Of a stretch of DNA of 6,786 bases, positions 184 to 6,570 are shown piece by piece. The position numbers and the translations under genes are program-made. The DNA lies in NCBI GenBank assembly GCA_020432595.1, contig JAGQGA010000297.1:1-6786 (forward strand), given 5' to 3'. The notes beneath the pieces are model-generated. The model did not search any database. It worked only from the letters and a program-made list of their open reading frames with translations, and was not told the origin of the DNA. This DNA is from Anaerolineales bacterium. Lineage in GTDB: Bacteria > Chloroflexota > Anaerolineae > Promineifilales > Promineifilaceae. Position 1 is the stretch's first letter. The number at the start of each line of letters is the position of its first letter.

Positions 184-252
184 GCAGGTGGCAAGTTACA
201 AGTGGCAGGTCGCCTTGACAAAGCAACTTGCCACTTGCCACCTGTTACTTGC
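184..252. repeat. Inverted heptamer array A (4 + 4 units)
   Basis: Four head-to-tail 7-base units occupy 184-211: GCAGGTG, GCAAGTT, ACAAGTG, GCAGGTC. After a 13-base loop (212-224), four units of the same consensus (RCARGTN) occupy 225-252 in the opposite orientation. The arms pair at 20 of 28 positions in register, so the array can fold into a cruciform or RNA hairpin. Its right end overlaps the ABC-F stop codon (252-254) by one base. It may end the ABC-F transcript, but no T-run follows, so a classic rho-independent terminator is not shown. Confidence 0.85.
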
Positions 253-1838
253 TACATTTCTGGAATCACTTCACCGCTGCCGGGCTGGGCCAGCAAACGG
301 CCGTTTTCAAACACCGCCAAAAAATCCACCGTCCTGTCCAAAAAGTAGCGGTCGTGGCTCACCACAATCAGGCTGCCGCTAAACTGGTCGAGAAAAGCCT
401 CCAATACGGCCAGCGTCTGTACATCCAGGTCGTTCGTCGGCTCATCCAGAATCAGCACGTTGGGCTGCTGCGCCAGCACGCTGAGCAAATACAGCCGCCG
501 CTTCTCCCCCCCACTCAGCGACGAAATCCACGCCTGCTGCTGCGGCCGAGGAAAGAGAAACCATTCCAGCATTTGCGCCGCCTCAATCCGCTCCCCCTCC
601 TGCGTGCGAATCAGCGGGGCGCGGTCGTTGATGAAGTCCAGCACCTTTTTGTCCAGCGGCAGCTCCCGGCTGTGCTGGTCGTAATACCCCACGACGACCG
701 TCTCCCCCCACGTCACTGTCCCGGCATCGGCCGGCAGCAGCCCCACCAAAATGTCGAGCAAGGTGCTTTTGCCCACGCCGTTGGGACCAATCAGCCCAAT
801 GCGATCCCCTTTTTCCAGCGTAAAATCAAGGTCTCGGAACAGTTCGTTTGTCCCAAACGATTTGGACAACCCTTTGGCCGTTAGCACCTTCGTTCCCAGC
901 CGACGGCTTGCCAGCGACATTGCCACCCGGTCATCGGCGCGGTCATAGCGAATTTGCTGTAGCTCTTCCACCCGCTGGATACGCGCCTTTTGTTTTGTCC
1001 CACGCGCAATGGCTCCTCGCTGTAGCCACGCCAACTCTCGCCGCAGTATTCCCTGCCGCTTTTCCTCGTCCGTCGCCAGCCGCTCCTCACGCTCGGCACG
1101 CTGCTCCAGATAGCGGGTATAGTTGCCGGGGTAGCTCACCAATTCGCGCCGGTTGAGTTCGATGATGCCGTTGGCAACCCGATCCAAAAAGTAGCGGTCA
1201 TGCGTCACCATCAGCAGCGCCCCCGACAAATTGAGCAAATGGGTTTCCAGCCAGTCTACGGTGTCGGCATCAATATGGTTGGTGGGTTCATCGAGGATGA
1301 GCAGATCGGCTGGGTCAACCAGCCCCTGCGCCAATGCCACCCGCTTGCGTTCGCCGCCGCTAAGGGTGCCAACTTTGGCCGCAAATTGGGTAATGCCCAG
1401 CCGCGTTAGCACCGCCTTGGCTTCGGCCTCGGCCGCCCAGCCGTTGCGCCGATCCATCTCGTCGCTGATGGCGGCAAACTGCTCCTGAAGCTGTTTTTGG
1501 CGCGGGTTGGCTTGCAGCAGGGCGGTCATGCGCTCATAGTCGCGCAGCAGCCGGATGTGAGGGGCATCGCTGGTAAACACCTGCTCCAGCACGGTCAGGC
1601 TATCGTCTAGCTCCGGCTCCTGGGGCAAATAGCGAATGCGAACGCCGCCCCAAACGGTGCGCTCGCCGCTGTCGGCGGGTTCCAGCCCGGTAATGATGCG
1701 GAGCAGGGTGGTTTTGCCGCTGCCGTTCACGCCAATCAGCCCCAGCCGGTCGCCGCTGTTGATTCGCAAATTGACCTGGGTGAGCAACGGCCGTTCGCTA
1801 AACTGTTTGCTGATGTTTTCCAGGGTGATTAAATTCAT
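252..1838 (-). CDS. ABC-F family ATPase, Uup type
   Basis: This soluble ATPase of 528 residues has two nucleotide-binding domains and no membrane segments, which is the ABC-F layout. Domain 1 has Walker A GVNGSGKT (36-43), signature LSGGERKR (159-166), Walker B LLILDEP (179-185) and switch His213. Domain 2 has GPNGVGKS (351-358), LSGGEKRR (441-448), VLILDEP (461-467) and His495. The charged linker around 244-300, with RRELAWLQRG and TKQKARIQR, resembles that of Uup. ABC-F proteins act on the ribosome in translation or antibiotic protection; Uup is also linked to transposon excision and ribosome assembly. The C-terminal coiled-coil domain of E. coli Uup is missing. The start was placed at MNLITLENIS, because the open frame upstream lies inside the protease gene and has no ABC-F character. 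That ATG overlaps the protease stop in an ATGA, implying translational coupling. Confidence 0.93.
   Translation of the reverse strand: MNLITLENISKQFSERPLLTQVNLRINSGDRLGLIGVNGSGKTTLLRIITGLEPADSGERTVWGGVRIRYLPQEPELDDSLTVLEQVFTSDAPHIRLLRDYERMTALLQANPRQKQLQEQFAAISDEMDRRNGWAAEAEAKAVLTRLGITQFAAKVGTLSGGERKRVALAQGLVDPADLLILDEPTNHIDADTVDWLETHLLNLSGALLMVTHDRYFLDRVANGIIELNRRELVSYPGNYTRYLEQRAEREERLATDEEKRQGILRRELAWLQRGAIARGTKQKARIQRVEELQQIRYDRADDRVAMSLASRRLGTKVLTAKGLSKSFGTNELFRDLDFTLEKGDRIGLIGPNGVGKSTLLDILVGLLPADAGTVTWGETVVVGYYDQHSRELPLDKKVLDFINDRAPLIRTQEGERIEAAQMLEWFLFPRPQQQAWISSLSGGEKRRLYLLSVLAQQPNVLILDEPTNDLDVQTLAVLEAFLDQFSGSLIVVSHDRYFLDRTVDFLAVFENGRLLAQPGSGEVIPEM
296..305. repeat. AACGGCCGTT palindrome, end of ABC-F gene
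   Basis: Perfect copy, read as Asn-Gly-Arg (ENGRLL). Confidence 0.9.
1786..1795. repeat. AACGGCCGTT palindrome, start of ABC-F gene
   Basis: Perfect copy, read as Arg-Pro-Leu (SERPLL), the third frame. Confidence 0.9.
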
Positions 1839-3001
1839 GAGGACTGGCTTTGATCCATAATCGCCTGTAGCCACGCTGCTTCGGCCAGGTTTGCCCCAGT
1901 CTGGGGGTAGTGGCGGAGGGTGTCGAGGCCGGTAGCGGCTCTGGCGCGAGCGGCGGAAAGCTGGCCTTCGCGCAGCAGCACGGCGGCTTCGGCACGGCAG
2001 GAGAGGGGATGGTTGGTGCTGCGCCGCCGCAGCCGTTCCAGCCATTCCCGCCCTTCAACGGGGTTGTTTTGCTGGCAGGCGAGCAGGTACGCTTTTTCCA
2101 AAGTAAAGCGGCCAATGGCTCCGGGGAAACGGCTGGCGCGGAGGGCAAAGGCATCGTCGAGGAGGAGGTGGGCTTGGGCAAAACGGCCGTTATCCACCGC
2201 CCACTGATAGACCAACAGCCGCGCCATCATCCCTTCCGAGGAGGCATCCAGCCCCGTCATCACCTGCTGCACCATTGTTTCGTCCCAGTCGCGGGGACGC
2301 TGCCCCTGCACATCGACCGAGTTAAGGGCAACCAAAGCGCACCAACGTTTGGCTTCGGCTCCGTTTTGCAGCAGCATGAGAATGCGGCCACCATCAGCGG
2401 GCATCCCATTGGGGTAAGTGCCGGGTTTCATGGAGGTGAGGAAGAAGATGAGGGAGTAAACGGCCGTTATTGCCGCACACTCCCCCACCCAAGCCGGTGC
2501 GCCGGTCGGCAGCCCATAAAACAATCCCCCTGCCAGCAGCGCCAGCAGCAGGCTTGCCAGCGGCCCACCCAGGGCAAACAGCAGCATTCGGCGGCGCAAA
2601 TCATAAATCTGTTCGGGAATGCTGGCCGCCAGCCCATTAAACGCTCCGCCCCGGCTTAGGCTAAGACGCAGCTTGCCCGTTTCGCGGCTAATCTTAAATG
2701 GCCCCACCACCAGCAAGTAAAAACGGAGCTTTGCCAGCCAGCCCCCCAGCAAATGCCCCAGTTCATGCACGGTTGAGGTTAGCAGCAGCAGTGCCGCCCC
2801 TACCACCAGCAGCCGCAAAAAGCTGCTAAACAAGCTGCTTTCCCCGGCCAGCCGTGCGCGAATGGCAATGCGGTTAATGTTGACCACCACGAGTGCCAAC
2901 AGCCCATAGAGTGTGAGGTTGAACAACCATGCCCACGCCGTCACCAGCCACGATTGCGGTCGGCGGCGGTGGGTTTGCTCTAGTTCGCTGTTAACACTCA
3001 T
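1835..3001 (-). CDS. M50 family site-2-type zinc metalloprotease with a helical (TPR-like) C-terminal region
   Basis: The 388-residue membrane protein has hydrophobic segments near 22-42, 60-78, 137-163 and 174-191. The zinc motif HELGH lies at 79-83 within the end of the second segment, and the third-ligand motif NGMPADGG at 198-205; both are hallmarks of M50 intramembrane proteases. Such enzymes cut substrates within the membrane, often anti-sigma factors; no substrate is evident here. Residues from about 210 onward are soluble, helical and Ala/Leu-rich, with TPR-like spacing (for example 255-360). This tail may hold partners, but I see no exact TPR consensus. The ATG at 2999-3001 was chosen because an upstream GTG (3037) would put the N-terminus inside a repeat. 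There is no Shine-Dalgarno, and a run of seven T abuts the ATG. The stop overlaps the ABC-F start by 4 bases. Confidence 0.88.
   Translation of the reverse strand: MSVNSELEQTHRRRPQSWLVTAWAWLFNLTLYGLLALVVVNINRIAIRARLAGESSLFSSFLRLLVVGAALLLLTSTVHELGHLLGGWLAKLRFYLLVVGPFKISRETGKLRLSLSRGGAFNGLAASIPEQIYDLRRRMLLFALGGPLASLLLALLAGGLFYGLPTGAPAWVGECAAITAVYSLIFFLTSMKPGTYPNGMPADGGRILMLLQNGAEAKRWCALVALNSVDVQGQRPRDWDETMVQQVMTGLDASSEGMMARLLVYQWAVDNGRFAQAHLLLDDAFALRASRFPGAIGRFTLEKAYLLACQQNNPVEGREWLERLRRRSTNHPLSCRAEAAVLLREGQLSAARARAATGLDTLRHYPQTGANLAEAAWLQAIMDQSQSS
2182..2191. repeat. AACGGCCGTT palindrome, protease tail
   Basis: Perfect copy, read as Asn-Gly-Arg (DNGRFAQ). Confidence 0.9.
2459..2468. repeat. 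AACGGCCGTT palindrome, protease membrane region
   Basis: Perfect copy, read as Thr-Ala-Val (ITAVYS). Confidence 0.9.
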
Positions 3002-3104
3002 AAAAAAACGTTTCACAGAGGTTCGCAGAGGAAGCACAGAGGTTCACAGAGAGCTTGATTCCCTCTGTGAACCTCCGTGCCTTCTCCGTGTTTCTCCGTG
3101 AAAC
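3002..3104 (-). terminator. Inverted repeat array D followed by a T-tract: probable terminator after mdh
   Basis: Arms at 3010-3051 and 3063-3104 (42 bases each, 11-base loop) match at 33 of 42 positions; several mismatches become G-U pairs in RNA. Each arm holds four copies of a CACRGAG core separated by 3-4 bases. Cores are at 3014, 3024, 3035 and 3045, and in reverse at 3063, 3073, 3084 and 3094. On the minus strand the closing stem GTGAAAC is followed by a C-G pair of bases and seven T (3008-3002), as in a rho-independent terminator. The array starts 4 bases after the mdh stop, and the T-tract ends directly at the protease ATG. Similar CACRGAG-type intergenic repeats are, to my knowledge, seen in varied environmental genomes. 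Confidence 0.75.
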
Positions 3105-3108
3105 TGCG

Positions 3109-4095
3109 TTATTTAGCTAATAAATGCGCCACAACATCGCGCTCTTCGCGCAGCTCGTTGAGCGTGGCCTGGATTTTGCTTTGGGCAAAGTCGTTGAGCG
3201 GCACATCTTGGACGATGCTGTAGCCACCTTGTCCGTCGCTGACTATCGGGAAGGAGAAGATGAGACCTTCGTCAATGCCATAGCTGCCGTCGGAGGCGAC
3301 AGCGGCCGAAAACCAGTTGCCGTCTGGGGTTTTGGCTTCAAAGCTGCGAACGTGGTCGAGGGCGGCGGAGGCGGCAGAGGCGGCAGAGGATTTGCCGCGT
3401 GCTTGGATGACAGCAGCACCTCGCTTTTGCACGACGCTGATAAATTCGCCGCGCATCCATTCCATGTCGTTGATGACTTCGGGGGCGGGACGGCCGTTAA
3501 TTTTGGCATTTTCCCCGTCGGGATACTGGGTGGCACTGTGGTTGCCCCAAATGGTAACGTTGCTTACCTCGTTGACCGTCACCCCGGCCTTTTGCGCCAG
3601 TTGAGCATAAGCCCGGTTTTGGTCGAGCCGGGTGAGAGCGCCAAACCGCTCACGCGGAATGTCGGGGGCGTTGTTCATGGCGATGAGGCAGTTGGTGTTG
3701 GCGGGGTTGCCCACCACCAGCACACGCACATCAGACGCGCCGCGCTGGAGTGCCTGCCCTTGCCCGGTAAAGATGGGACCGTTTGCCAAAATCAGGTCGC
3801 CGCGCTCCATACCGGCGCTGCGCGGGCGTGAGCCAACCAGCAGCGCCCAGTTCACGCCGTCAAAAGCAACGTTGGGGTCATCGGTGACAACCATTTTTTC
3901 CAGCAGCGGAAAAGCACAGTCGTCCATTTCCATAACCACCCCTTCCAATGATGGTAGTGCCGGGGTGATTTCCAGCAGATGCAGATGGATTTTGGTGTCC
4001 ATGCCAAAAACTTCGCCATTGGCGATACGCGGCAGCAGTGAGTAGCCAATCTGCCCGGCCGCGCCTGTAACAGCAACTTTAACAACTCGTGACAT
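3109..4095 (-). CDS. mdh: Malate dehydrogenase
   Basis: The protein has 328 residues, the usual length for the cytosolic-type (TIGR01759-like) malate dehydrogenases. It interconverts malate and oxaloacetate with a nicotinamide cofactor in the TCA cycle. The Rossmann motif GAAGQIG lies at 11-17. Glu42 at the end of the second strand suggests NAD rather than NADP (inference). Substrate arginines are R92 and R98 in the loop RPRSAGMER, with R161 in LDQNR. The catalytic pair is D158 (LTRLDQN) and H186 (IWGNHS). The start at 4093-4095 fits the family N-terminus [17 protein letters not shown] and has AAGGAG ten bases upstream; a possible GTG start 18 codons earlier adds non-homologous residues. The gene seems to be its own transcription unit, with a promoter at 4203-4230 and a hairpin after its stop. 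Confidence 0.96.
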
Positions 4096-4105
4096 GATGT
4101 TTTTT

Positions 4106-4111
4106 CTCCTT
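4106..4111 (-). promoter_or_regulatory. Ribosome binding site of mdh
   Basis: The minus strand reads AAGGAG with a 10-base A-rich gap to the ATG. It decides the start at 4095 over the GTG at 4149. Confidence 0.85.
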
Positions 4112-4118
4112 AAACCGG

Positions 4119-4168
4119 TTGGGGTTGCCAAGCTTTGTTCTGGCACCACTGCCTGCTCGCAACCCCAA
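4119..4168 (-). promoter_or_regulatory. Inverted repeat in the mdh 5' leader
   Basis: A perfect 10-base inverted repeat, TTGGGGTTGC at 4119-4128 and its complement at 4159-4168, encloses 30 bases. The interior holds a small stem of its own (GGCA 4142-4145 with TGCC 4150-4153). It lies between the proposed promoter and the mdh Shine-Dalgarno, so it would be in the leader RNA. No T-run follows in the mdh direction, so it is not an ordinary terminator. It could be a leader regulatory structure or a protein site. I do not recognise it as a known riboswitch. Confidence 0.5.
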
Positions 4169-4193
4169 TCGTTTTTTGTAAAGGTATCTCTTG

Positions 4194-4208
4194 GATAATG
4201 GGATTATC
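4194..4208. promoter_or_regulatory. Dyad over the mdh -10 region, possible operator
   Basis: GATAAT and ATTATC form a perfect 6-base inverted repeat around GGG. The right half is the proposed -10 box of mdh read on the other strand, and the left half lies at the expected transcription start. A regulator bound here would block RNA polymerase. No regulator gene is in the window. Confidence 0.4.
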
Positions 4209-4230
4209 GCCCATTGGCGTAAAGTGGCAA
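4203..4230 (-). promoter_or_regulatory. Predicted sigma-70-type promoter of mdh
   Basis: On the minus strand, TTGCCA (4230-4225, 5 of 6 to consensus) is followed after 16 bases by GATAAT (4208-4203, 5 of 6). Transcription would begin near 4196, giving a leader of about 100 bases. The promoter sits just after repeat array B and before mdh, as expected for a new transcription unit. Confidence 0.55.
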
Positions 4231-4234
4231 GTAC

Positions 4235-4318
4235 GGTAAACAGTAAACAGTAATCGGTAAACAGTAAACAGTAATCAGTTGGGGGTCACTGATTACCGAT
4301 TACCGATTACTGATTACT
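4235..4318. repeat. Inverted heptamer array B (6 + 4 units)
   Basis: Six tandem heptamers fill 4235-4276 in the order GGTAAAC, AGTAAAC, AGTAATC, then the same three again, so the left arm is also a perfect 21-base direct duplication. After a spacer (4277-4290, including a degenerate unit at 4284-4290), four inverted heptamers follow: GATTACC twice and GATTACT twice (4291-4318). The consensus unit is RGTAAWC. The right end overlaps the methyltransferase stop codon (4317-4319) by two bases. Just left of the array, 4222-4232 carries 11 bases identical (on the other strand) to array A units. Confidence 0.85.
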
Positions 4319-5111
4319 ATCCTCCCCGCTGGCGCACCACCTCGTAGAGCAGCAGGGCGGTGGCGGTGGATAGGTTGAGGCTGTCGGCGATGCCGTGCAT
4401 GGGGATAACGACGTGGGTGTCGGTTTGGGCAAGCCAGTCGTGGCCGAGACCGTGGGCTTCACTGCCCATGACGATGGCGACGGGGTCGTGCATGGGAACA
4501 TCGGTGTAGCTGGTTTGCCCGGCGGGGGTGGCGGCAATGATTTGGATGTGGCGTTGGCGGAGCCAAACGGCCGTTTCTTTTACCCCGCTCACCGCCACCG
4601 GCACATGAAACAGCGTCCCCAGGCTGGCTCGCACTACGTTGGGGTTAAATATGTCGGTGCTGCTGTCACCCGTCACAATCACCCCGTCCACTCCGGCGGC
4701 ATCGGCTGTACGCAGGATAGCTCCCAGGTTGCCCGGCTTTTCCACGTTGTCCACCACGACGTAAAATGGGTTGGCCGCTCGGGGCAAATCGGCCAGCCGG
4801 GTCGGCCAATAGGGGACGGTTAGCACCACGCCACCGCTTTCGCCACGATAGGCGATTTTTTGAAAAACGGCCGTTGTGATCTCCACCCACTCGGTTCCCC
4901 GTGCCGCCACCTGCCGCAGTTGTGCCGCCATTTCTTGGTTGGTGAGCAGTTCGGGGCAGACAAAAACGGCCGTTGGCACCACGCCCGCTGCCAATGCCCG
5001 CAGCACTTCACGCTCCCCCTCCACCAGCGTCAGCCGCGCCGCGTCCCGCTGCCGCCGGTTGTTGAGCTTAACAAGTTGTTTAATACGGCCGTTTTGCAAA
5101 CTAGAGATCAT
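4317..5111 (-). CDS. SpoU/TrmH family RNA 2'-O-ribose methyltransferase
   Basis: The 264-residue protein has the two-part layout of this family. Residues 1-100 resemble the substrate-binding (L30e-like) domain, with the typical opening 'I.S..N..IK.L..L..R' and LVEGEREV at 29-36. Residues 116-264 form the knotted SPOUT methyltransferase: motif 1 NVEKPGNLGAILRTADAAG (122-140; key N128 and R134), motif 2 VMGSEAHGLG (214-223), motif 3 IPMHGIADSLNLSTATALLLYE (236-257). It uses S-adenosylmethionine to methylate a ribose in rRNA or tRNA. The exact target cannot be read from sequence; RlmB- or TsnR-like 23S rRNA enzymes are closest. The start has no clear Shine-Dalgarno, but the N-terminal motif begins at once, so it is probably right. 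The gene carries three perfect and one near copy of AACGGCCGTT and lies between two repeat arrays. Confidence 0.92.
   Translation of the reverse strand: MISSLQNGRIKQLVKLNNRRQRDAARLTLVEGEREVLRALAAGVVPTAVFVCPELLTNQEMAAQLRQVAARGTEWVEITTAVFQKIAYRGESGGVVLTVPYWPTRLADLPRAANPFYVVVDNVEKPGNLGAILRTADAAGVDGVIVTGDSSTDIFNPNVVRASLGTLFHVPVAVSGVKETAVWLRQRHIQIIAATPAGQTSYTDVPMHDPVAIVMGSEAHGLGHDWLAQTDTHVVIPMHGIADSLNLSTATALLLYEVVRQRGG
4566..4575. repeat. AACGGCCGTT palindrome, methyltransferase gene, copy 1
   Basis: Perfect copy, read as Thr-Ala-Val (ETAVW). Confidence 0.9.
4866..4875. repeat. AACGGCCGTT palindrome, methyltransferase gene, copy 2
   Basis: Perfect copy, read as Thr-Ala-Val (TTAVFQK). Confidence 0.9.
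4965..4974. repeat. AACGGCCGTT palindrome, methyltransferase gene, copy 3
   Basis: Perfect copy, read as Thr-Ala-Val (PTAVFV), 99 bases from copy 2. A one-mismatch copy lies at 5084-5093 (QNGRIK). Confidence 0.9.
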
Positions 5112-5121
5112 TATTACTTGT

Positions 5122-5180
5122 TGAGATTGGAGATTAGAGATTGGAGATTAATCAGTGCCAATCTCCAATCTCTAATCTCT
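5122..5180. repeat. Inverted heptamer array C (4 + 3 units) with a 20-bp perfect stem
   Basis: Tandem heptamers TGAGATT, GGAGATT, AGAGATT, GGAGATT (5122-5149) face AATCTCC, AATCTCT, AATCTCT (5160-5180) across a 10-base loop. Bases 5130-5149 and 5160-5179 are perfect complements. The array begins 2 bases after the stop of the unknown gene and ends 11 bases before the methyltransferase ATG (5109-5111). It therefore fills nearly the whole gap. No T-run follows the stem, so termination is possible but unproven. Confidence 0.88.
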
Positions 5181-5182
5181 AT

Positions 5183-5733: not shown

Positions 5734-6570
5734 TTATGATTTTCGCCTTAGACCGGGTGCTGCCAGTGCCTCATCGCTTGACCAGGTGGAAATGGGGAGT
5801 GAAGGTTTGTCCTCTTCCGTTTTCAGCCAATCGCGCATGAGCAGAATGGTCGTGGTACTGAAAACGATGCCGCCCAGCACCCAAATCAGCATCGAGCCTA
5901 CATTATAGTCGTTGATGTCTAGCCCGGAAAAATGGAAGGTTTGGGGGTAGAGAAAAACGGTTTGGGGGTTGATGAGCAAGATTAACCCTACGATTTTGAT
6001 GGGTGCGGCTCCAATGATGGTGTAGGCGGCGCGAGCCAGGGGGGGGATGGGGGGATGCCAATATGGGTAAGCCTGGGTAATGTGCCACCAGTAGAGCAGC
6101 GCCGTCCCCAACAGCATCGGGATTTCGACCCAACGCAGCAGGGGGTGCAGAAGGGTAGCTTGGTGAATGAGCGGGTCGTACCAGAGCCAAAAGGTGGAGA
6201 TAAAGAGCAGCCAGGCGACACCGCGATTGGTAAACGGCCGTATTTTTGCCACAAACGGCCGTTTTTCCTCCAACCAACCCCGCCATCCATCCGGCAGCCC
6301 GGCCAAAATCTGTGGCAGCGGGTTGGCCGCCATCAGCAACGCCGGAATCCAGGCGATGAGCAGCAGATGTTGCGCCACGCGCAGAGAAAAATATTGGCTG
6401 GCAAGCTGATGAAACGGTGTTGCCAGGGCAAGCAGCAAAATGGCAATTCCGGCAGTGAAAGACGTGGCCGATAGCCTGCTGCTTGGCACCAGGTGACGAC
6501 CACGACCATAGTAAAAGGTGGTAGTCAATAAAACGGCCGTTATGCCTAATCGCCAAATCCAAATACCCAT
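5734..6570 (-). CDS. CtaG-type (caa3_CtaG) cytochrome c oxidase assembly membrane protein
   Basis: The 278-residue protein has about seven membrane helices, near 4-20, 36-53, 65-83, 116-132, 148-166, 181-201 and 224-245. The pattern fits the caa3_CtaG family: RVAQHLLLIAWIPALLM (64-80) with a conserved-type His68, a helix ending in YWWH (160-163), and a C-terminal DYNVGSMLIWVLGGIVF helix followed by a short polar tail. In Bacillus, CtaG is needed to form active caa3 oxidase, probably by helping copper insertion. No oxidase subunit gene lies within this window. An in-frame TAA lies four codons upstream of the ATG at 6568-6570, which limits the start. There is no Shine-Dalgarno, and the predicted promoter places the transcript start on the ATG itself. 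It carries two perfect palindromes and one near copy. Confidence 0.88.
   Translation of the reverse strand: MGIWIWRLGITAVLLTTTFYYGRGRHLVPSSRLSATSFTAGIAILLLALATPFHQLASQYFSLRVAQHLLLIAWIPALLMAANPLPQILAGLPDGWRGWLEEKRPFVAKIRPFTNRGVAWLLFISTFWLWYDPLIHQATLLHPLLRWVEIPMLLGTALLYWWHITQAYPYWHPPIPPLARAAYTIIGAAPIKIVGLILLINPQTVFLYPQTFHFSGLDINDYNVGSMLIWVLGGIVFSTTTILLMRDWLKTEEDKPSLPISTWSSDEALAAPGLRRKS
6254..6263. repeat. AACGGCCGTT palindrome, ctaG-like gene
   Basis: Perfect copy, read as Arg-Pro-Phe (KRPFVA). A one-mismatch copy lies 21 bases away at 6233-6242, also read as Arg-Pro-Phe. Confidence 0.9.
6532..6541. repeat. AACGGCCGTT palindrome, first codons of the ctaG-like gene
   Basis: Perfect copy, read as Thr-Ala-Val (ITAVLL). 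Confidence 0.9.

What the first reader, a model, noticed from the sequence alone, without database searches (positions are those of the whole stretch)
184..5180. A family of modular inverted repeat arrays, one design with four different units
Four gaps (184-252, 3010-3104, 4235-4318, 5122-5180) each hold tandem short units, a 10-14 base loop, then the same units inverted. Unit consensus differs: RCARGTN, CACRGAG with spacers, RGTAAWC and RGAGATT. Unit counts are 4+4, 4+4, 6+4 and 4+3. Each unit type has a position that toggles between A and G. Shared architecture without shared sequence suggests a process that builds or maintains such hairpins, not copies of a single mobile element. Heptamer STRR repeats of filamentous cyanobacteria are a partial analogy, but they are not known to me as paired inverted arrays.
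Basis: partly seen in the sequence, partly recalled or inferred. Interest (0 to 1): 0.85.

Follow-up and report, generated by a model that had tools for sequence, protein, structure and literature searches.

The report
Swappable repeat hairpins after bacterial genes
Right after the ends of many genes, these Chloroflexota bacteria carry small DNA hairpins built from seven- or eight-letter repeats; related species usually keep a hairpin in the same place but sometimes with a different repeat, so place and shape can outlast the letters.

Summary
In detail: four intergenic hairpins made of short tandem units facing each other, at the stated places, well above chance. Correction: gap 2 has a ~10-base period. 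In 1.42 Mb sampled from four relatives the design occurs 101 times (0 in one Markov shuffle of the same stretches), period 7 in 66, period 8 in 31. Across five genomes 84-91% identical, gaps with an array keep one in 108 of 132 comparisons, against 23 of 70 for gaps without. Yet 6 of 17 slots hold a different unit in at least one relative. Arms tend to mirror each other. Best reading: slippage plus hairpin-templated copying builds and rewrites arrays in slots after stop codons. The kind is known: Xanthomonas GGGAATC heptamers also form convergent pairs near stop codons (PMC4692102). Here quadruplex motifs are nearly absent (1 of 105), many unit types share a genome, and units change in place. 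New variant of a known kind; mechanism and function are inferred.

The parts
184..255 (.). Array 1: RCARGTN-type 7-mers, inverted pair; overlaps the stop codon (252-254, minus strand) of the ABC-F-type ATPase gene
3010..3104 (.). Array 2: ~10-base units (CACRGAG plus spacer), 42-nt arms, 4 nt after the malate dehydrogenase stop codon
3002..3008 (-). Run of seven T on the gene strand, one base after array 2, as in an intrinsic terminator
   Evidence: sequence
4235..4318 (.). Array 3: RGTAAWC 7-mers, inverted pair; overlaps the stop codon of the SpoU methylase gene
5123..5181 (.). Array 4: RGAGATT 7-mers, perfect 20-nt arms (5130-5149, 5160-5179); 1-3 nt after the stop codon of the 167-aa ORF and 11 nt before the next start codon
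252..1838 (-). ABC-F-type ATPase gene, ends in array 1
   Evidence: PF00005, PF12848; the name ABC-F is my reading
1835..3001 (-). M50-like membrane protein gene, downstream of array 2
   Evidence: PF02163, below its cut-off
3109..4095 (-). Malate dehydrogenase gene, ends at array 2
   Evidence: PF00056, PF02866; lactate/malate dehydrogenase family
4317..5111 (-). SpoU-family RNA methylase gene, ends in array 3
   Evidence: PF00588
5183..5686 (-). 167-aa ORF without a Pfam family, ends at array 4

Best explanation
These are intergenic self-complementary short-repeat arrays: a run of 7- or 8-base units pointing inward from each side of a small loop, sitting in the spacer right after stop codons. 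Inferred mechanism: replication slippage adds and removes units; because the two runs pair, template switching inside the hairpin copies changes from one arm to the other and keeps the arms complementary and the units alike. A variant unit can so sweep through both arms, or part of an array can be recopied from another array in the genome, and the unit changes while slot and shape stay. Arrays survive mainly where a hairpin after a stop codon is harmless or mildly useful and are rare between divergent genes. Shown here: design, abundance, polarity, position, slot retention, unit change, partly mirrored arms. Inferred: slippage and template switching as the cause, and the tolerance or use of the hairpin.
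For: 101 periodic hairpins in 1.42 Mb of four relatives, 0 in one shuffle of the same stretches. Slots: 108 of 132 gap comparisons keep an array versus 23 of 70 for array-free gaps (202 of 282 comparisons, the 80 whose first gap was unclear or tandem-only left out). Unit change in place in 6 of 17 slots with an ortholog, e.g. TGATGCG in three genomes and GCAAGTGGC in two at one slot. Mirroring: permuting units within one arm, register re-optimised, lowers pairing in 39 of 53 arrays and raises it in 14; arms pair better with their own partner than with arms of the same family elsewhere in 51 of 68. A mirrored variant, GAGAATAG facing CTATTCTC, is in one of two sister genomes. On the gene strand G-T and A-C mismatches are equal, 73:75, as a DNA-level process would give. 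Pairing and unit likeness fall away from the loop (0.83/0.78/0.76 by thirds; 0.82 to 0.71). Template switching is known to create and repair hairpins (PMC8794818, abstract and opening read).
Against: Slippage and template switching alone do not explain the near-absolute polarity nor the preference for periods 7 and 8. They do not easily turn TGATGCG into GCAAGTGGC; that needs copying from elsewhere or loss and regain. Some slots hold hybrids whose two arms belong to different unit families, so pairing is not always restored. Shared slots could also reflect repeated gain in permissive gaps. The share of changed units does not rise with flank divergence (0.10, 0.27, 0.36, 0.18 at flank identity 75-85, 85-90, 90-94, above 94; 10, 59, 36, 11 comparisons). 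The fall from the loop may partly come from the hairpin finder. The mirroring effect is modest (17.1 against 16.0 in score).
Confidence: 0.5

Rival explanations
1. The hairpins are kept by selection for an RNA job at gene ends: stopping transcription, protecting the 3' end, or separating co-transcribed genes. Any unit will do as long as it folds, so the sequence drifts while the hairpin stays.
For: Position right after stop codons (69 of 105 within 30 nt) and few in divergent gaps (5 of 63 arrays in classed gaps; 168 of 664 gaps are divergent). At the malate dehydrogenase slot nine of twelve relatives show a hairpin followed by at least four T, one an 8-mer array plus such a hairpin, and the window an array followed by seven T (read by eye). 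T runs after arrays are somewhat commoner than background (14 of 86 versus 8.4%). In the window arrays 2 and 3 fold better as sense than as antisense RNA (-64.4 against -54.1; -41.3 against -32.1); over 62 arrays sense is better in 39 and worse in 20.
Against: No excess of G-U-tolerant mismatches on the transcribed strand (73 G-T, 75 A-C). Mean folding energy is the same for sense and antisense (-32.4 and -32.3 kcal/mol, Wilcoxon p 0.34). 72 of 86 array ends have no T run. Array 4 lies 11 nt before the next start codon, so it is unlikely to be a complete terminator. No expression data were available.
Confidence: 0.28
2. They are miniature mobile elements (REP- or MITE-like) that insert after stop codons; slots look conserved because insertion keeps hitting the same permissive gaps.
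For: The same units are scattered over a genome (244 matches of (RGTAATC)x3, overlapping ones counted, in G005) and patchy among relatives (10 of 59 genomes). Arrays are sometimes absent from a slot (3 of 61 comparisons). In one search, 23 of 70 array-free gaps have an array in the other genome.
Against: 30 loci (of 40 matches listed; at most 1.5 kb of flank) around Y1 transposase genes show no flanking 7/8-mer arrays; several show ordinary palindromes. G001 has arrays but no Y1 match (draft genome). Slot retention is well above that of array-free gaps. Hybrids of two families facing each other are not what whole-element insertion gives. Target duplications were not assessed.
Confidence: 0.17
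3. A reverse transcriptase or telomerase-like enzyme adds templated repeats to both 3' ends of a break, which are then joined head to head; this would explain the fixed polarity.
For: The polarity resembles two fused telomere-like ends (the analogy is mine). A bacterial enzyme, DRT10, makes tandem-repeat DNA with a noncoding RNA (PMC12632851, abstract read).
Against: G066, which has arrays at the compared slots, has no RVT_1 match; the other seven genomes have one to four (draft genomes). Many unit types in one genome would need many templates. No template was looked for.
Confidence: 0.03
4. The arrays exist because their units form G-quadruplexes, as proposed for the Xanthomonas and Nostoc repeats.
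For: Same size, convergent pairing and location as the GGGAATC repeats; in Xanthomonas transcripts start or stop more often at quadruplex-capable repeats than at shorter or mutated ones (PMC4692102, sections 10, 13, 15).
Against: Only 1 of 105 arrays has a four-run G3 motif, and 8 have a two-tetrad motif within one arm.
Confidence: 0.02

Closest known systems
GGGAATC / GGGGA(C/T)T heptameric repeats of Xanthomonas and Nostoc (Rehm et al. 2015, PMC4692102; abstract and sections 10, 13-16 read)
   Same: Tandem heptamers, mostly four units, intergenic, close to or overlapping stop codons, under-represented between divergent genes; in Xanthomonas 70 and 75 convergent inverted pairs; 83% at the same gene context in a second species; units of a similar form (GGGAATC, GGGGATT against GGTAATC, GGAGATT here).
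   Different: They studied one unit type per genome, with G-tracts and proposed quadruplexes; few pairs in Nostoc. Here many unit types per genome, no G3 quadruplex motif in 104 of 105 arrays, period 8 also common, and the unit replaced in place. Lone (unpaired) arrays were not counted here.
TAACTGA direct repeats of Beggiatoaceae and Cyanobacteria (MacGregor 2015, PMC4679880; abstract, section 10 and passages read)
   Same: Intergenic heptamer arrays, 7-nt length changes between strains, same flanking genes in near strains.
   Different: Direct repeats with a single inverted case in the main genome, mostly just upstream of start codons.
REP/BIME elements with RAYT transposases (PMC3733652, passages; PMC2817692, search listing only)
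   Same: Palindromic, often close to coding regions, may supply a stop codon.
   Different: Short palindromes with a GTAG or CGTC tag, not tandem units; in these genomes several Y1 loci carry other, ordinary palindromes.
Cyanobacterial STRR heptamers (recalled; three tandem heptanucleotides of Calothrix are mentioned in PMC4692102)
   Same: Tandem 7-mers between genes.
   Different: Not described as inverted pairs in what I read.
Intrinsic transcription terminators
   Same: Hairpin after the stop codon; array 2 is followed by seven T.
   Different: Arms built of tandem units; 72 of 86 array ends lack a T run.

Membership tests
GGGAATC-type heptameric repeats (Xanthomonas) | Tandem heptamers, several units | tested here: met
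   period 7 in 66 of 101 (8 in 31); median 3.1 units per arm
GGGAATC-type heptameric repeats (Xanthomonas) | Convergent inverted pairs | tested here: met
   by construction of the search, lone arrays were not counted
GGGAATC-type heptameric repeats (Xanthomonas) | Near stop codons, rare between divergent genes | tested here: met
   69 of 105 within 30 nt; 5 of 63 arrays in divergent gaps, 168 of 664 gaps divergent
GGGAATC-type heptameric repeats (Xanthomonas) | G-tracts able to form a G-quadruplex | tested here: not met
   1 of 105 arrays
REP elements mobilised by RAYT | Transposase gene flanked by the same repeat | tested here: not met
   30 Y1 loci scanned, no 7/8-mer array; L096 has a ~10-base-period pair about 1 kb from the gene
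REP elements mobilised by RAYT | GTAG or CGTC tag beside a short palindrome | not tested
   no tag search was run
Intrinsic terminators | Hairpin followed by a U tract | tested here: not met
   14 of 86 array ends, background 8.4%; met for array 2
TAACTGA repeats | Direct TAACTGA units upstream of start codons | tested here: not met
   units and positions
MITE | Target-site duplication and clean empty sites | tested here: inconclusive
   a few slots lack an array but the relatives are too far apart to read duplications
Known RNA family | Match to an Rfam model at its gathering score | tested here: not met
   0 matches in the window

The most novel reading that the evidence does not exclude
Bacterial chromosomes hold fixed 3'-end hairpin slots whose repeat cassette is exchanged in place: a directional copying process, acting from the loop outward and using a shared library of 7/8-base units, rewrites both arms in step while polarity, period class and position are kept. 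This would be a general, sequence-independent way of evolving and renewing gene-end hairpins.
Probability: 0.22. Interest if true: 0.85.

Novelty: new variant of a known kind. Interest (0 to 1): 0.6.

Why it matters
It shows gene-end hairpins whose place and shape can outlive their sequence, which bears on how long stems arise and stay paired. It also separates the heptamer-pair architecture from G-quadruplex formation: the same layout and location occur with units that lack quadruplex motifs. And it offers a natural laboratory (many slots, many units, graded relatives) for measuring hairpin-templated copying in bacteria.

Tried and rejected
RAYT mobilisation: 30 of 40 listed Y1 matches came as loci; none has a flanking 7/8-mer array. 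Reverse transcriptase dependence: one draft genome with arrays has no RVT_1 match; a template RNA was not sought. G-quadruplexes: rejected for most arrays. Canonical terminators: only a minority of arrays have a T run, and gene ends with an array are not clearly different in canonical terminators (4 of 47 versus 85 of 534). RNA-level pairing constraint: no G-T over A-C excess. A first mirrored-order test (1519 matched pairs against 1426 +/- 12) was biased by the register chosen by the finder, so I rely on the re-optimised one. Stop codons: the arm met first by a ribosome has stops in 2.0 frames (shuffled 1.4), the other in 0.5 (shuffled 0.7); this may explain polarity or follow from it, left open. 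Spread: (GAGATTR)x3-type pattern in 1 of 38 genomes not labelled Chloroflexota (38 of 68 such loci were given), although three of those 68 loci hold arrays of other units. The alignment of G001 with G002 was useless because one strand was not turned.

Limits of the counts. G030 was sampled because it was rich in the GTAATC unit and the G002 contig because it held a Y1 match, so densities are not averages; one 20-kb stretch of G010 (L130, with one array) was not used in the census. The automatic 'different unit' count (32 of 116) includes at least three misreads in which a GGTGGC repeat beside the array was picked (comparisons with G064 at L171:9168). Some 'different' units are near neighbours (CGTAATC and GGTAATC); the slot count is the safer figure, and there one of the three 'different' calls at L175:12843 (G066) is such a near neighbour. 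In one search an unclear second gap was counted as 'none'. 36 of 105 arrays were scored 'in ORF' by my simple ORF caller, probably because it extends genes to the first possible start; they are not in the orientation counts. I printed the region upstream of malate dehydrogenase in the relatives but did not work out whether the slots of arrays 1, 3 and 4 are orthologous there.
Full report
What is in the window. Six identified genes in a row on the minus strand (frames cut by the window ends were not examined), from a bacterium whose closest malate dehydrogenase relatives are Chloroflexota, 83% identical. Four short spacers each hold two facing runs of short units. Each array lies within 4 nt of, or overlaps, the preceding stop codon. 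Gap 2 has ~10-base units, the others 7-base units. At the strict setting three of the four are found and 0 of 20 Markov shuffles give any; folding z-scores are -3.8 to -10.7. Rfam gives nothing at its gathering scores.

How common. No genome is held for the window, so I sampled relatives. In 733 kb of G002, 240 kb of G011, 360 kb of G030 and 83 kb of G001 there are 34, 8, 57 and 2 periodic hairpins; one shuffle of each stretch gives none. G030 was chosen because it is rich in one unit, so its density is not typical. Period 7 accounts for 66, period 8 for 31, period 9 for 3, period 12 for 1. One genome carries many unit types: GTAATC, GAGATT, GATGCG, AGTGAGC and the 8-mers GTAATTGG, GAGATTRR, GATATTRR among others. 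The exact pattern (RGTAATC)x3 is in 10 of 59 relatives of G002, with 0 matches for the reversed control. Among 68 loci not labelled Chloroflexota, three hold such arrays with other units (L026, L034, L038).

Polarity. Each main unit type points toward the loop in one orientation: GAGATT 115:0, GATGCG 54:0, TAATTG 66:0, GTAAT 146:2, GTGAGC 17:0, GATATT 12:0, GAGGCG 9:0; two are less strict, GTGAAC 11:2 and GACGAG 12:4. Across types the first arm is richer in G than in C in 94 of 105, 10 the other way, 1 tie; for non-periodic hairpins it is 89 against 59 with 21 ties. RGNRATY appears 200 times in the inward orientation and once in the other. These 105 arrays are the 101 plus the four of the window.

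Position. With a simple ORF caller, 69 of 105 arrays lie within 30 nt of the stop codon of an ORF of at least 100 aa, many overlapping it. Of the 101 arrays outside the window, 38 are between codirectional, 20 between convergent and 5 between divergent genes, 36 were scored inside ORFs and 2 at edges; the gaps of 50 nt or more divide 367, 129 and 168.

Slot kept, unit changed. Three regions of G030 (2.5, 16 and 17.5 kb) were compared with G039, G064, G065 and G066, all 84-91% identical to one another. From 18 G030 arrays, 61 of 72 comparisons found the orthologous gap: 43 with a similar unit, 10 with a different one, 5 in between, 3 without array; 17 slots have an ortholog and 6 of them a different unit in at least one genome. 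The criterion was lenient; 4% of shuffled 95-mers pass it. Over all pairs of the five genomes, gaps with an array keep an array or tandem run in 108 of 132, gaps without have one in 23 of 70 (odds ratio 9.2, p 7e-12, but comparisons are not independent; 80 of 282 with an unclear or tandem-only first gap are left out). A smaller control from G030 alone gave 6 of 21. Looking back from G064, four of six arrays had an ortholog in G030: two like arrays, one array of ~10-base units, one unrelated palindrome. In the G002/G001 pair only two of four arrays had an ortholog: one the same unit, one an unrelated hairpin.

Examples. One slot has TGATGCG in three genomes and GCAAGTGGC, the type of window gap 1, in two. 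At another the closest pair, G030 and G039, differ (CGTAATC against AGTGAGC), while G030 looks like G065 and G039 like G064, against overall relatedness; more distant relatives have an 8-mer (G014) or AATGATG (G020) there, and G002 nothing. A third slot has 8-base units in three genomes and 7-base units of the same type in two. Some arrays are hybrids with two families facing each other, polarity kept.

Arms in step. Unit order is mirrored between arms more than chance: 39 against 14 of 53 arrays with the register re-optimised, a modest effect. Arms fit their own partner better than arms of the same family elsewhere in 51 of 68. Stem mismatches that read G-T and A-C on the transcribed strand are equal, 73 and 75, and sense and antisense fold equally on average (sense better in 39, worse in 20 of 62), so there is little sign that RNA pairing is what is kept. 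In the window itself arrays 2 and 3 do fold better as sense RNA (-64.4 against -54.1; -41.3 against -32.1), which points the other way.

What it does. At the malate dehydrogenase slot nine of twelve relatives have an ordinary hairpin with at least four T after it; L009 has an 8-mer array followed by such a hairpin, L006 what looks like an inverted AAGCTGATT-type array, L007 a hairpin without T run, and the window an array with seven T (read by eye; the finder did not report L006). So an array can stand in the place of a terminator. But only 14 of 86 array ends have a T run, and array 4 lies 11 nt before the next start codon. I take a mild gene-end role or plain tolerance as more likely than a strict terminator.

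What is known. Rehm et al. 2015 (PMC4692102; abstract and sections 10, 13-16 read) describe GGGAATC heptamers in Xanthomonas, with 70 and 75 convergent pairs, near stop codons, 83% retained at the same genes in a second species, with 'extensive length and sequence variation'. They propose quadruplexes and studied one unit type per genome. MacGregor 2015 (PMC4679880; abstract, section 10 and passages) describes TAACTGA direct repeats. 'Satellites in the prokaryote world' (PMC6749651; passages) notes (GATAGRA)n in Chloroflexus aurantiacus. REP families that can supply a stop codon are in PMC3733652 (passages). Template switching that makes and mends hairpins is in PMC8794818 (abstract and opening). 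I saw no report of unit replacement in conserved slots in ten searches, of which I read listings and the papers named; subscription papers are not covered.

Verdict. Real, widespread in these relatives and oddly regular; a new variant of the inverted heptamer-pair repeats already seen in Xanthomonas. New here, as far as these searches go: many unit types side by side, in-place change of unit, near-absolute polarity across types, and independence from G-quadruplex motifs. Mechanism and function remain inferred.

Noticed in passing
window, 15 copies, e.g. 4867-4874, 4966-4973, 6533-6540: The palindrome ACGGCCGT is strongly over-represented: 15 in the window, 1520 in 733 kb of G002 and 700 in 360 kb of G030 against about 18 and 8 expected from base composition; the next palindromic 8-mer is at least 11 times rarer there. 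Against a sixth-order Markov expectation the excess is small (1520 against 1222), since its inner words are enriched too. It resembles HIP1 of cyanobacteria (recalled). L007 has 1 in 13 kb.
   Followed up: partly
L089, L096, L100-L102 (Y1 transposase loci): Ordinary short palindromes (such as AACTTCCCGGAACCT or AACCTCCCGGAGGTT) lie beside Y1 transposase genes of several Chloroflexota genomes.
   Followed up: partly
L115, L117, L118, L197-L199 (G002): A second dispersed palindrome pair, AGACCCCAAGGGTTTG facing CAAACCCTTGGGGTCT with a spacer of up to 28 bases, recurs in G002 (first 40 non-periodic hairpins listed).
   Followed up: no
G005, contigs C19, C21, C25, C55: Contigs begin inside perfect GGTAATC arrays, so array length is probably underestimated in short-read assemblies.
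   Followed up: no
window 2999-3010: The seven T after array 2 run straight into the ATG of the M50-like gene, leaving no room for a ribosome-binding site; that gene's real start or promoter is unclear.
   Followed up: no
all 105 arrays: The arm met first by ribosomes from either side has stop codons in 2.0 frames on average (shuffled 1.4), the other arm in 0.5 (shuffled 0.7).
   Followed up: partly
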